A DNA stretch of 32,340 nt, from assembly GCA_945861935.1 (NCBI GenBank), contig CAMAVU010000015.1, positions 1-32,340 on the forward strand. The letters run 5' to 3'. This DNA is from Bifidobacterium breve (GTDB taxonomy: Bacteria; Actinomycetota; Thermoleophilia; Miltoncostaeales; Miltoncostaeaceae). The translations under genes were made by a program, and so were the position numbers. Positions within the stretch are counted from its first letter, which is position 1, and each line of letters opens with the position of its first letter. Below, one piece after another: positions 1,931-32,340 of this stretch. The notes under the pieces are model-generated. The model was not told the origin of the DNA. It saw only the letters and a program-made list of their open reading frames with translations, and ran no database searches.

Positions 1931-3220
1931 GTGAGCCAGCAGTTCGTGATCCAGGGCGGGCACGCGCTGGCGGGCACGGTGGCCCCCTCGGGCAACAAGA
2001 ACGCCGCGCTGCCGATCCTTGCCGCCACCCTCCTCACTGACGAGGAGGTCATCGTCGAGAATGTCCCGGACATTCTGGACGTCCACGCGATGCTGGCGAT
2101 TCTGGATGACCTCGGGGTGTCCGTGCGCGAGGAGGAGGACGGGGCGCTCGCGTTCCGGGCCGACGGGATCCGCGGCACCCGGCTGGACCCCGAGTTGTGC
2201 AGGCGCATCCGCGCATCGGTGCTGTTCGCCGGGCCGCTTCTGGCCCGGGCGGGTTCCGTGACCCTCCCCCTGCCGGGCGGCGACTTCATCGGGCGTCGCC
2301 GGATTGATACGCACCTCATGGGCTTCCGGTCGCTCGGGGCGACGATCGACGCGTCCGATCGCGCGTACGCCATCACCCAGACCGGGCTTGTGGGAGCAGA
2401 GATCTTCCTGGACGAGGCATCCGTGACGGCCACCGAGAACGTGCTGATGGCGGCCGTCCTGGCCCGGGGCCGGACGACGATCCTCAACGCGGCCTCCGAG
2501 CCCCACGTGCAGGACCTCGCGACCTTCCTGGTGGCGATGGGTGCGCACATCGAGGGAATCGGGACGAACCGCCTGATCATTGACGGTGTCGAGCGCCTGC
2601 ACGGCTGCCGCTTCCGGATCGGTCCCGACTACATCGAGATCGCGTCATTCATCGGACTCGCGGCCATCACCGGGTCCGACCTCGTCATCTCGGAGGCCCG
2701 CCGGGAGGACCTGCGCATGATCCTCCTGGGATTCGGGCGTCTCGGCATCCGCGTGGAGTGGATCGGGGACGGCGCGCTCCGCGTGCCCCCGGACCAGTCC
2801 CTCGAGGTGGTGCAGGACGAGGGCGGCGCCATCCCGAAGATCGATGATGGTCCGTGGCCGGCGTTCCCCGCCGACCTGACGTCCATCGCGACGGCGGTCG
2901 CCACTCAGGCAAAGGGCGAGGTCATGATCTTCGAGAAGATGTTCGAGAACCGCCTGTTCTTCGTGGACAAGTTGGTGGCGATGGGCGCTCGCATCATTCT
3001 CTGCGACCCGCACCGGGTGGTGGTGAGCGGACCGACACAGTTGTACGGCGAGCGCGTTGACAGCCCCGACATCAGGGCGGGCATGGCCATGCTCATCGCC
3101 GGCCTCGCGGCGAAGGGAACGACCAGCATCGGGAACATCGGGCAGATCGACCGGGGCTACGAACGCATCGATGAGCGGCTCCGGTCCGTGGGTGCGCGCA
3201 TCGAACGGGTGGACGACTAG
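1931..3220 (+). CDS. murA: UDP-N-acetylglucosamine 1-carboxyvinyltransferase (Asp-type MurA)
   Basis: This cytoplasmic enzyme transfers enolpyruvate from PEP to UDP-GlcNAc, the first committed step of peptidoglycan synthesis. The 429-residue length fits the family. The substrate-binding motif [10 protein letters not shown] is at residues 21-30 (Lys23) and [13 protein letters not shown] at 94-106. The active-site loop reads [10 protein letters not shown], placing Asp118 (codon 2282-2284) where most MurA proteins have the catalytic Cys that fosfomycin alkylates. Known Asp-type MurA enzymes, for example in mycobacteria, are active and intrinsically fosfomycin resistant. An open frame continues upstream to 1592, but homology begins at [13 protein letters not shown], so GTG 1931 is the start. 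hisZ begins 4 bases after the stop. Confidence 0.95.
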
Positions 3221-3223
3221 GCG

Positions 3224-4441
3224 ATGACCGATCCGGTTGAACTGCCCGCCGGGGTACGCGATGTGCTGCCCGTGGAGGCGGCGGAGTTGCGCGCGTTGGG
3301 CGATGCGCTGGACGGCGCCTTCCGGGCCTTTGGCTACCGGGAGGTGATGACGCCGCTGATCGAACTCGCCGATGTGCTCGACAGGGCCGAGGACGAGGGG
3401 GTCGGACGGGCGTACCGCCTGTTCGATGATGAGGGGCGCGTCCTCGTGCTCCGGCCCGATCTCACGATCCCCATTGCCCGGCTCGTTGCCACGCGTATGG
3501 CCGACCACCCGGACCCGGTTCGCGTGTCGTACAACGCGCGCGCGGCCCGTCCGCCGTCGCCCGGCAAGATCGAGGGTGCCGAGCAGCGCCAGGCCGGCAT
3601 CGAACTGGTCGGCCCCGACGGGCCGGAGGCGGATGCCGAGGTGATCGCCGCGCTGTCCTACGCCCTTGCCGCCGCGGGCGTGCCGGATGCGCGCATCGCG
3701 ATCGGCTCGGTGGCCATCGTGTCCGCGGTACTCGATGGTGCCGGTGCCGATGGCCCGGTGCGGGCGTCTCTGTGGGGTGCGCTGCGCGGCCGCAGCGTCG
3801 TGGACTGGCGCCGGGCCGCGGAGGAGATCGGGGCCGAGGGGGACCTGGGGGAGGTACTGACCGGGCTCCCGGCGATGCGCGGCGGTCGCGAGCTCCTCGA
3901 CCGGATCGGGACGGCCGTGCCGCCCGCCCGGTCCGAGTGCGAGCGACTGGACGCGGTGCTCGACTGCGTGGCGCGGCACGGCGTGGCCCCGCCGATGGTG
4001 GACATGGGCGTGGTGCGCGACTGGAGTTACTACTCGGGAGTGGTCATCGAGGCGTATGCGATGGGAGCAATGGCCCCGGTAGCCGTGGGCGGTCGCTACG
4101 ACGGGCTGGGGGCGCGGTTCGGGCGGCCACGCGCTGCGGTGGGGGTGGCGGTCGCTCTGGACCTCCTCCACCACGCGGTGGGGCGGTCGGCCGAGCGGCC
4201 GGCAGCCGGGATCGTCCTCGTGGGGGGAGCCGACGATCTGGTGGCCGATGCGGTCGCCCTGCGCCGCGCCGGCACCGCGGTTCTCGCCGTGGCCTCCCTG
4301 CACCCGGACCCCGACGCGGTTGCGGTGGCGGATGGCCGGGGGTACGTCGTCAGACGCGTGGCCGACGGCTGGAGTGTCCGCGATGTCGCCACCGGATCGG
4401 ATGAGATCCTGAGTGACCTTGGGGCAGGCCCGTGGACCTGA
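3224..4441 (+). CDS. hisZ: ATP phosphoribosyltransferase regulatory subunit
   Basis: HisZ is a catalytically inactive paralogue of histidyl-tRNA synthetase that forms a complex with short-form HisG and is needed for the first step of histidine synthesis and its feedback control. The 405-residue protein has the class II synthetase-like core: AGVRDVLP near the N-terminus, LRPDLT at 76-81, a degenerate motif 2 region, RDWSYYSGVVIEAY and GGRYDGLGARFG. The last 95 or so residues form a separate C-terminal extension. The partner hisG follows directly with a 10-base overlap, which supports HisZ over a true HisRS. The ATG is 4 bases after the murA stop. Confidence 0.93.
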   Translation: MTDPVELPAGVRDVLPVEAAELRALGDALDGAFRAFGYREVMTPLIELADVLDRAEDEGVGRAYRLFDDEGRVLVLRPDLTIPIARLVATRMADHPDPVRVSYNARAARPPSPGKIEGAEQRQAGIELVGPDGPEADAEVIAALSYALAAAGVPDARIAIGSVAIVSAVLDGAGADGPVRASLWGALRGRSVVDWRRAAEEIGAEGDLGEVLTGLPAMRGGRELLDRIGTAVPPARSECERLDAVLDCVARHGVAPPMVDMGVVRDWSYYSGVVIEAYAMGAMAPVAVGGRYDGLGARFGRPRAAVGVAVALDLLHHAVGRSAERPAAGIVLVGGADDLVADAVALRRAGTAVLAVASLHPDPDAVAVADGRGYVVRRVADGWSVRDVATGSDEILSDLGAGPWT

Positions 4442-5067
4442 GGATCTGCGTACCGCTCGGCGCGCTTCTCGAGGGATCATTGGCCGCGATCGCCGCGGTG
4501 GGCCTGCCCGTGGAACCACTCCGTGATGCGGGTCGGCGCCTGATCGTCGAGGTGCCGGGCGGTCCGACGTACATCACCACGCGTCCTACCGACGTGCCGA
4601 CCTACGTCGAAAGCGGCGCCGCTGACATCGGCATCGTCGGCCGTGATGTGCTGCTGGAGCGCGAGCCCGACGTCTATGAACTCGCCGACCTCGGGTTCGG
4701 CGGTTGCACGATGTCGTGGTGCACGCCCGCCGGGGACGACCCGACGGCGCTGGCCATCGAACGCTTCGGTGTTGTGCGTGTGGCGACGAAGTACGTGAGG
4801 TGCGCCGAGCGGTTCTTCGAGGGGACGGGCCGGAAGGCCGAGATCGTGAAGGTGAATGGGTCGGTGGAACTCGCGCCGCTGGTCGGCCTGGCCGATGGGA
4901 TCGTTGACCTCGTGGCCACGGGTCGCACGCTGCGCGAGAACGGACTGGTGGAGCGCGAGGTCCTGTTCGAGTCCACGGCCCGGCTGATCGCCAACCGCGT
5001 GAGCCACAAGTTGCGCGCCGACGTGCTGGACGGTCTCGTCCGTGCGTTCGAGGCCGGGGGGGCGTGA
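4432..5067 (+). CDS. hisG: ATP phosphoribosyltransferase, short catalytic form
   Basis: HisG joins ATP and PRPP to give phosphoribosyl-ATP, the first step of histidine synthesis. At 211 residues this is the short form, lacking the C-terminal regulatory domain of long HisG; it therefore requires HisZ, encoded just upstream. Visible motifs: DIGIVGRD (65-72), VNGSVELAPLVGLAD (141-155) and the PRPP-binding segment DLVATGRTLRENGL (159-172). It starts with GTG inside the last codons of hisZ and ends in a GTGA overlap with hisD, pointing to coupled translation. Confidence 0.95.
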   Translation: MDLRICVPLGALLEGSLAAIAAVGLPVEPLRDAGRRLIVEVPGGPTYITTRPTDVPTYVESGAADIGIVGRDVLLEREPDVYELADLGFGGCTMSWCTPAGDDPTALAIERFGVVRVATKYVRCAERFFEGTGRKAEIVKVNGSVELAPLVGLADGIVDLVATGRTLRENGLVEREVLFESTARLIANRVSHKLRADVLDGLVRAFEAGGA

Positions 5068-30963: not shown

Positions 30964-31461
30964 ATGACGCCCGATGACGCCGTCCGGCAAGCGCTGTGCA
31001 CACATATGGGGCGCGAGTTCGCTGCCCACTTCCAGTATCTGGCCATGTCCGCCTGGCTCGCGGGCGAGGGCCTGCCCGAGACCTCCGGCTTCTTCGGCGG
31101 CCAGGCGTCGGAGGAGCATGTCCACGCCATGAAGTTCCTCCAGTTCATCGTGGACACGGGCGGGCCCGTCGAGATCCCCGCCGTGGATGCCCCGGCGGCG
31201 GCCTTCGCGTCGGCGGAGGCGTTGGTCGGGTCCGCCCTCGCGCAGGAGGAGCAGATCACCCGGTGGATCGAGGACCTCGTGCACCTCGCGCGTGACCACA
31301 GGGACCTGGCAACCGAGGCGTTCCTCCAGTGGTTCATCAGGGAGCAGGTCGAAGAGGTGGCGACCATGACCGAACTCCTCCAGGTGGTCCGCCACGCGGG
31401 ACCGAGCCTGCTTCTGGTGGAGGACTACGTGACCCGCTGGAAGCCGACCCGGGCCCGGTAG
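30964..31461 (+). CDS. ftn: Non-haem ferritin
   Basis: A 165-residue bacterial ferritin (FtnA type) that oxidises and stores iron in a 24-subunit shell. Ferroxidase-centre residues are in place: Glu18 in MGREFAAHFQYLAMSAWL, Glu51 and His54 in SEEHVHAMKF, Glu95/96 in AQEEQITRW, and Gln128 in REQVEE. No haem-ligand Met as in bacterioferritin is evident. The ATG is preceded by a good Shine-Dalgarno, GGAAGGA at 30950-30956, 7 bases away. It is followed by a strongly structured region at 31463-31556. Confidence 0.94.
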   Translation: MTPDDAVRQALCTHMGREFAAHFQYLAMSAWLAGEGLPETSGFFGGQASEEHVHAMKFLQFIVDTGGPVEIPAVDAPAAAFASAEALVGSALAQEEQITRWIEDLVHLARDHRDLATEAFLQWFIREQVEEVATMTELLQVVRHAGPSLLLVEDYVTRWKPTRAR

Positions 31462-31624: not shown

Positions 31625-32014
31625 ATGACGGGTCCCCCAGGCACCCGAGGCCCACGCATCCCCCGGGCGCCCGCGGCCCTCCTCACCGCGAGCGCACTGC
31701 TGCTCCTGCCCGGCACCCTTGCGCTCGCCGGGGTGTGGGCCACCCCCCCGAGCGACCTCTCGGCCCCGGGCCAGAACGCCTACGTCCCCCAGATCGCCCC
31801 CGGCCCCTCAGGCGTCGTGACCGCCGTGTGGCGGCGCTCCAACGGCACGGCCTCCATCATTCAGGCCTCCCGGTACGCCGCCGGCGCGTGGAGCGCGCCC
31901 AGCGACCTCTCGGCCCCGGGCCAGGACGCCTACGCCCCCCAAATCGCCACCGACCCCTCAGGCGTCGTGACCGCCGTGTGGTACCGCTCCAACGGCACGG
32001 ACCTCATCATCTAG
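31625..32014 (+). CDS. Secreted tandem-repeat protein, cut short by an in-frame TAG
   Basis: The frame encodes 129 residues up to TAG 32012-32014. The N-terminus is a secretion signal: basic residues, a hydrophobic core (AALLTASALLLLPGTLALAG, about 17-36) and a possible cleavage site after VWA. Exact 50-residue repeats then follow (SDLSAPGQ, PQIATDPSGVVTAVW, SNGT, ASRYAAGAW). The same frame remains open after the TAG to the window end with the same repeat, so the original protein is longer. The repeat resembles extracellular beta-propeller-like blades (Asp/Pro-Ser-Gly turn then AVW strand), but I cannot assign a family. The gene could be a pseudogene, a readthrough gene or a sequencing error. 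Confidence 0.65.
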   Translation: MTGPPGTRGPRIPRAPAALLTASALLLLPGTLALAGVWATPPSDLSAPGQNAYVPQIAPGPSGVVTAVWRRSNGTASIIQASRYAAGAWSAPSDLSAPGQDAYAPQIATDPSGVVTAVWYRSNGTDLII

Positions 32015-32340
32015 GCCTCCCGGTACGCCGCCGGCGCGTGGAGCGCGCCCAGTGACCTCTCGGCCCCGGGCCAGAACGCCAGCGCCCCCCAGATCGCCAC
32101 CGACCCCTCAGGCGTCGTGACCGCCGTGTGGTACCGCGACAACGGCACGCACTGGGTCATCCAGGCCTCCCGGTACGCAGCCGGCGCGTGGAGCGCGCCC
32201 AGCGACCTCTCGGCCGCGGGCCAGGACGCCTACACCCCCCAGATCGCCACCGACCCCTCAGGCGTCGTGACCGCCGTGTGGTACCGCTCCAACGGCACGA
32301 ACTACATCATCCAGGCCTCCCGGTACGCAGCCGGCGCGTG
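31751..32340 (+). repeat. Tandem array of 150-bp coding repeats (at least 3.9 units)
   Basis: Unit starts at 31751, 31901, 32051 and 32201 (each AGCGACCTCT or AGTGACCTCT), so the period is exactly 150 bases or 50 codons. The last unit continues beyond the window. Units are nearly identical at the DNA level, including silent positions; differences cluster at two protein sites, after GQ(N/D)A and around the NGT motif. This indicates recent duplication or ongoing gene conversion. Confidence 0.93.
32015..32340 (+). pseudogene. In-frame continuation of the repeat protein beyond the TAG (partial)
   Basis: After TAG 32012-32014 the same reading frame stays open to the end of the window and encodes the rest of unit 2, all of unit 3 and most of unit 4, with protein sequence as well conserved as before the stop. 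At the equivalent position the other units have CAG (31862, 32162, 32312), so one C-to-T change explains the stop. Absence of further stops or frameshifts suggests the change is recent, suppressed or an error. Confidence 0.6.

What the first reader, a model, noticed from the sequence alone, without database searches (positions are those of the whole stretch)
31751..32340. Near-identical 150-bp repeat array with one nonsense unit
Four units of exactly 50 codons are almost identical, yet unit 2 has TAG (32012-32014) where the others have CAG. The rest of the frame is intact to the window end. Because units are so alike, unequal recombination or gene conversion could remove or spread the stop, giving an on/off or length-variable secreted protein. 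Variation between units is concentrated at two short sites per repeat, as if one face were diversifying. A recent pseudogene or an assembly error in a repeat are the plain alternatives.
Basis: partly seen in the sequence, partly recalled or inferred. Interest (0 to 1): 0.6.

Follow-up and report, generated by a model that had tools for sequence, protein, structure and literature searches.

The report
Disrupted copy of hypervariable propeller family
The repeats are the first four blades of a secreted ring-shaped (beta-propeller) protein, one of about eight related genes in this bacterium whose blades are nearly identical except on one face, where they vary as if selected to bind different things; the premature stop most likely marks a recently broken copy rather than a switch.

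Summary
Observation confirmed: an ORF from ATG 31625 with an apparent signal peptide, then 3.9 near-identical 150-bp units, with TAG (32012-32014) replacing an otherwise Gln codon. The window is a whole contig of a 78-contig draft assembly, and that contig ends inside the array. The same genome holds intact paralogues with 5, 7 or 8 units plus an FnIII domain and a shared C-terminal tail. AlphaFold of the 7-unit paralogue gives a beta-propeller (pLDDT 90.5; VIA Z 40 to CylK, about 30 to PLL lectins). Seven codons per blade, at one face of the ring, are hypervariable: in this gene and its three closest paralogues 18 of 18 blades differ there, pN 0.46 against pS 0.08, and largely the same sites vary in a TM6 homologue. 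A second paralogue (C5) has an in-frame TAA in blade 1, and a 27-codon remnant lies on C44. RF1 is present and TAG ends normal genes. Best reading: a recently inactivated member of a birth-and-death family of secreted propellers with a diversifying face; it resembles the fungal HNWD/HET-E repeat system. An on/off switch is not excluded but has no positive support. An assembly or consensus error at the TAG cannot be excluded without reads.

The parts
31625..32014 (+). Disrupted propeller gene: ORF from ATG to the premature TAG (129 codons)
   Evidence: translation; homologous to intact paralogues on C21, C18, C20 and the partial C9
31625..31729 (+). Apparent Sec signal peptide (basic start, Leu/Ala-rich stretch, ends ...LALA)
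   Evidence: by inspection of the translation; similar in C21, C18, C20, C17
31751..32340 (+). Array of 150-bp (50-aa) blade units, 3.9 copies, cut by the contig end
   Evidence: TRF; contig end
32012..32014 (+). Premature TAG at an otherwise Gln (CAG) position of blade 2
32015..32340 (+). Frame continues open beyond the stop (rest of blade 2 to blade 4), no further lesion
31775..31786 (+). Hypervariable site A of unit 1 (strand 4 to strand 1 turn); the same site at +150, +300, +450
31832..31855 (+). Hypervariable site B of unit 1 (strand 2 to strand 3 turn, xRxNGTxx); the same site at +150, +300, +450
30964..31461 (+). Neighbouring ferritin-like gene, ends with TAG (shows TAG is a working stop)
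   Evidence: Pfam PF00210 E 4.7e-34; stop codon

Best explanation
The array is the 5' part of a gene for a secreted beta-propeller protein, one of a paralogous family in this genome. Each 50-aa unit is one blade. Intact members have 5 to 8 blades followed by an FnIII domain and a roughly 100-aa C-terminal tail. Seven residues per blade, all in the two turns on one face of the ring, are diversified while the rest of the blade stays nearly identical. The inferred mechanism: blades are duplicated, lost and shuffled by recombination within and between paralogues, which keeps the framework uniform, while selection favours new residues on the binding face, so the family is a changing set of extracellular binding proteins. 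The target is not known; a glycan or a surface structure of other organisms is the likeliest guess from the lectin-like fold. Genes in such a family are born and lost often. The C15 copy carries a C-to-T nonsense change in blade 2, should give only a 129-residue fragment, and is most likely a recently inactivated member. Shown: repeats, stop, paralogues, predicted fold, site-specific variability, other broken copies. Inferred: selection as the cause, recombination as the shuffler, binding function, and that the stop is present in cells.
For: Paralogues with the same units: C21 (7), C18 (5), C20 (8), C24 (8), C17 (8), C9 (at least 2 and part of a third, cut by the contig end). AlphaFold of C21: pLDDT 90.5, four strands per unit; VIA Z 40.0, 340 aligned, rmsd 2.3 to the CylK propeller and Z about 30 to seven-bladed PLL lectins. 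Variable sites were ranked on genes outside the test group, then tested in C15+C21+C18+C9: pN 0.462 at these sites, 5.8 times the overall pS (bootstrap 4.2-8.9), other sites 0.83 times. Control against codon bias: counting G/C changes only, 0.25 at positions 1-2 of variable codons against 0.027 at fourfold sites; within C15 no fourfold difference in 136 comparisons but 54% at variable positions 1-2. The TM6 homologue, with A/T-rich third positions, varies at largely the same sites. Variable residues lie at the turns of one face: entropy 0.98 against 0.23 at the other face, p 0.0065. Units hardly track position across paralogues, which fits shuffling. Turnover: in-frame TAA in C5 blade 1, 27-codon remnant in C44, one-blade remnant in G004. 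RF1 present; TAG ends four normal window genes.
Against: No reads and no second genome of this species were available, so the TAG could be a consensus error or a minority allele. Only one, or two with C5, of about eight copies carry a stop, and the frame after it is clean, so decay cannot be demonstrated from further lesions. pN/pS is a simple pairwise count on repeats that recombine; strong codon bias (95% G/C at third positions) lowers pS and is only partly controlled for. In C24 and G2b the face contrast is not significant. Binding function is untested.
Confidence: 0.66

Rival explanations
1. The TAG is an assembly or consensus error in a collapsed repeat; the real gene is intact and reads CAG.
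For: The contig breaks inside the array 326 bases downstream, its last 75 bases are identical to C21, and several contig ends of this draft lie in or next to family members. The bases next to the TAG are otherwise those of C21 unit 2.
Against: No other copy has T there, so it cannot come from mixing known copies; a short-read graph assembler normally needs several reads to keep such a base (general knowledge). A second in-frame stop occurs in C5, in divergent sequence that is not prone to repeat collapse.
Confidence: 0.2
2. The stop is one state of a reversible on/off or length switch: unequal crossing-over or gene conversion between units removes or spreads it.
For: Units are similar enough for recombination (91% by TRF; exact stretches up to 82 bases with C21); unit number differs between paralogues; deletion of one 150-bp unit would keep the frame.
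Against: No second allele seen; nonsense copies are rare in the genus and family (four flagged rows, of which one is an ordinary gene end and one a remnant). Nothing indicates regulation.
Confidence: 0.07
3. Suppressed or read-through stop: TAG (and TAA in C5) are decoded as Gln.
For: Both stops sit at positions where most blades have Gln, one C-to-T change away.
Against: RF1 is encoded, and TAG or TAA end the aminotransferase, EPSP synthase, phosphoribosyltransferase, ferritin and ProRS genes of the window. C-to-T at Gln codons is a common route to nonsense.
Confidence: 0.02
4. A diversity-generating retroelement or similar targeted mutagenesis creates the variable codons.
For: Variation is confined to a few codons with almost no silent change.
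Against: No reverse transcriptase of PF00078 in the own genome (genome 95.7% complete); no repeat copy outside family genes.
Confidence: 0.02

Closest known systems
Highly repetitive ('nascent') beta-propellers, including disrupted ones (PMC9218822, PMC6805158)
   Same: Near-identical blades, varying blade number, members broken by in-frame stops or frameshifts; Actinobacteria among the main holders
   Different: The terms 'hypervariable' and 'positive selection' do not occur in the main text of the 2022 survey; here variability is concentrated at seven codons on one face of secreted proteins with an FnIII tail
Podospora anserina HNWD / HET-E WD40 repeat family (PMC1805685, PMC2873952)
   Same: Paralogous family, concerted evolution of repeats, variable repeat number, diversifying selection at pairs of codons flanking a conserved residue, in the D-A loop and a beta-turn of one face, pseudogene members
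   Different: Fungal NACHT-WD40 receptors; here secreted bacterial 50-aa blades, no NACHT, not WD40
PLL/PHL seven-bladed lectins of Photorhabdus
   Same: Seven-bladed propeller fold, Z about 30
   Different: 14-16% identity over the aligned part, no sequence match; sugar binding of this family untested
Asp-box / BNR sialidase-type propellers
   Same: Weak BNR_2/BNR_4 similarity, Foldseek matches to sialidases, Asp-box-like S.DYG.TWS in Anoxychlamydiales homologues
   Different: No SxDxGxTW motif in the window family, score below Pfam's cut-off

Membership tests
Highly repetitive beta-propellers | Beta-propeller fold | tested here: met
   AlphaFold of paralogue C21, VIA Z 40 to a solved propeller; the window copy itself was not folded
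Highly repetitive beta-propellers | Blades with high internal identity (60% or more) | tested here: met
   150-bp units with 91% matches
HNWD/HET-E family | WD40 repeats on a NACHT receptor | tested here: not met
   Architecture is signal peptide, blades, FnIII, tail; the only Pfam match over its cut-off is fn3
HNWD/HET-E family | Diversifying codons on one propeller face | tested here: met
   (works like it; membership not claimed)
Asp-box/BNR propellers | SxDxGxTW motif / Pfam cut-off | tested here: not met
   BNR_2 16.5 bits against cut-off 31.4; motif absent from C15 and C21 units
PLL-type lectins | Sugar binding between blades | not testable with these tools
   only fold similarity
Diversity-generating retroelement target | Associated reverse transcriptase | tested here: not met
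   PF00078 absent from the own genome
Phase-variable gene | Both on and off alleles in a population | not testable with these tools
   one genome per species, no reads

The most novel reading that the evidence does not exclude
A bacterial secreted recognition repertoire: paralogous propellers share a framework and exchange blades, selection diversifies one binding face, and silent (nonsense) copies such as C15 serve as donor stores of blades for expressed copies by gene conversion.
Probability: 0.12. Interest if true: 0.75.

Novelty: new variant of a known kind. Interest (0 to 1): 0.42.

Why it matters
Repetitive propellers that are amplified and broken are known, and in fungi such repeats form self/non-self receptors. 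A bacterial, secreted version with the same logic (fixed framework, variable face, changing blade number, several paralogues, broken copies) would be a compact system for asking what drives this diversification, since the ligand-facing positions can be read off the sequence. The stop itself matters little.

Tried and rejected
Genetic-code change: rejected (RF1 present, TAG and TAA end normal genes). DGR: no reverse transcriptase. Viral homologues: none with this query. PDB by sequence: the propeller part gives no match; the whole-family profile lists FnIII proteins. In-frame stops flagged in G016 and G004 were checked: an ordinary gene end, and a one-blade remnant whose 'stops' lie in another gene's region. 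The 3' part of the window gene could not be assigned: C66 holds one orphan tail, but C15 and C9 both lack theirs. The 5-unit paralogue C18 was folded: confident blades, but its N-terminal strand is not formed, so whether five units close a ring is open. NCBIfam names nothing convincing for C21 or C20. Literature: no paper found on diversifying selection in secreted bacterial propellers, which covers only the held open-access library.

Full report
1. Observation. In the frame of ATG 31625 the protein starts with an apparent signal peptide and continues as 50-aa units; TAG at 32012-32014 ends it after 129 codons, and the frame is otherwise open to the window end. Of 15 places in the genome with the motif ATCATYYAGGCCTCCCGGTACGC, only this one has TAG.

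2. Context. The window is the complete contig C15 of a 1.6-Mb, 78-contig draft genome; the window is 70% G+C, and the genus has 20 held genomes. The contig ends inside the array; its last 75 bases equal a stretch of C21. Other contigs break at the same family: C9 ends after 129 bases shared with C18, and C21 and C18 both start with the same 149 bases, which are also the end of C44. That shared start lies in the last codons of an upstream paralogue, so C21 and C18 each follow the tail of another copy: the family has spread partly as tandem or segmental duplications (inference from the contig ends).

3. Family. Intact paralogues are C21 (7 units), C18 (5), C20 (8), C24 (8) and C17 (8); C9 is cut by its contig end. 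The intact ones end with an FnIII domain (Pfam fn3 for C21, C17 and C5; similarity for the others) and a tail of about 100 aa. FnIII plus a related tail also follow a different kind of repeat on C49, C42 and C28. All 20 genomes of the genus have relatives at E 0.001 or better, and 30 of 42 of the family at 1e-8. Named relatives from the species collection: a candidate division TM6 bacterium (56% identity), Solirubrobacterales bacterium 67-14 (48%) and several Anoxychlamydiales (33-43%). The host's own taxonomy was not given; the Solirubrobacterales match and the high G+C suggest an actinobacterial lineage, but this was not tested.

4. Fold. The paralogue C21 was predicted at mean pLDDT 90.5 with four strands per unit. 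VIA-align gives Z 40.0 (340 residues, rmsd 2.3) to the propeller of CylK and about 30 to the seven-bladed PLL lectins. The 5-unit C18 keeps its blades, but its N-terminal strand is not formed in the model, so ring closure with five units is doubtful.

5. Hypervariable face. Counting from the Leu of LSAxG as 0, codons 6, 8, 9, 25, 27, 31 and 32 vary strongly. To avoid choosing sites on the test data, sites were ranked in the TM6, G9, C24, C17, C20 and G2 genes; the top seven (3, 6, 8, 9, 25, 27, 32) were tested in C15, C21, C18 and C9: pN 0.462, which is 5.8 times the overall pS (bootstrap 4.2-8.9), against 0.83 times for the other sites. Codon bias is strong, so a control counted only G/C exchanges: 0.25 at positions 1-2 of variable codons, 0.027 at fourfold sites; inside C15 no fourfold site differs (136 comparisons) while 54% of variable positions 1-2 do. 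In a four-stranded antiparallel blade the turns s4-s1 and s2-s3 are on one face, s1-s2 and s3-s4 on the other. The variable codons are at the first pair (strands). Entropy is 0.98 against 0.23 (p 0.0065); the contrast is also seen in C20, TM6, G9 and G2a, not in C24 and G2b. All 18 blades of the four close genes have different residue sets at the seven positions. Collinear units of two paralogues are scarcely more alike than other pairs, which points to shuffling or homogenisation.

6. The stop. RF1 is encoded, and TAG ends the aminotransferase, EPSP synthase, phosphoribosyltransferase and ferritin genes of the window, so the codon should terminate. Decay is not unique to this copy: C5, a divergent paralogue, has ATG, a signal-like start, then TAA at C5:43877-43879 where most blades have Gln, followed by 595 open codons; C44 keeps only the last 27 codons of a copy; G004 keeps one blade and a tail. 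This matches published highly repetitive propellers, a number of which are broken by in-frame stops or frameshifts soon after they arise (PMC9218822). Because no reads or second strain were available, an error at this base remains possible (about 0.2).

7. What it works like. The fungal HNWD/HET-E family shows the same set of features: exchange of repeats among paralogues, variable repeat number, diversifying selection at pairs of codons on one propeller face, and inactivated members (PMC1805685). It is a likeness in mode of evolution, not membership: there is no NACHT domain and the blades are not WD40. A DGR is not supported. Secretion and the lectin-like fold make binding of outside ligands the most likely role; this is inference.

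8. Verdict. Ordinary part: a nonsense copy in a repetitive propeller family. More interesting part: strong, face-specific diversification in a secreted bacterial propeller family.

Noticed in passing
L015:5755-7668 (G000:C5:43754-45667): Second disrupted propeller gene in the same genome: TAA at C5:43877-43879 in blade 1, then a long open frame.
   Followed up: partly
L067 (G000:C44:1-197): Remnant of the last 27 codons of a family member; the contig ends in the 149 bases with which both C21 and C18 begin: tandem or segmental duplication with deletion.
   Followed up: partly
L068, L069, L070 (G000:C49, C42, C28): A related FnIII plus C-terminal tail is fused to a different repeat type (GSAIVTGxFxGTATFGSTTLTSSG), also highly alike within each gene; the tail may be a shared anchoring or sorting module.
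   Followed up: no
L079 (LBOA01000002.1, TM6 bacterium) 2899-4482: Eight-unit homologue, 56% identical, in a host of another phylum with A/T-rich third positions, varying at largely the same sites; possible horizontal transfer.
   Followed up: partly
G029:C53:12405-13286: A family-level relative lies in an open frame of 6146 codons.
   Followed up: no
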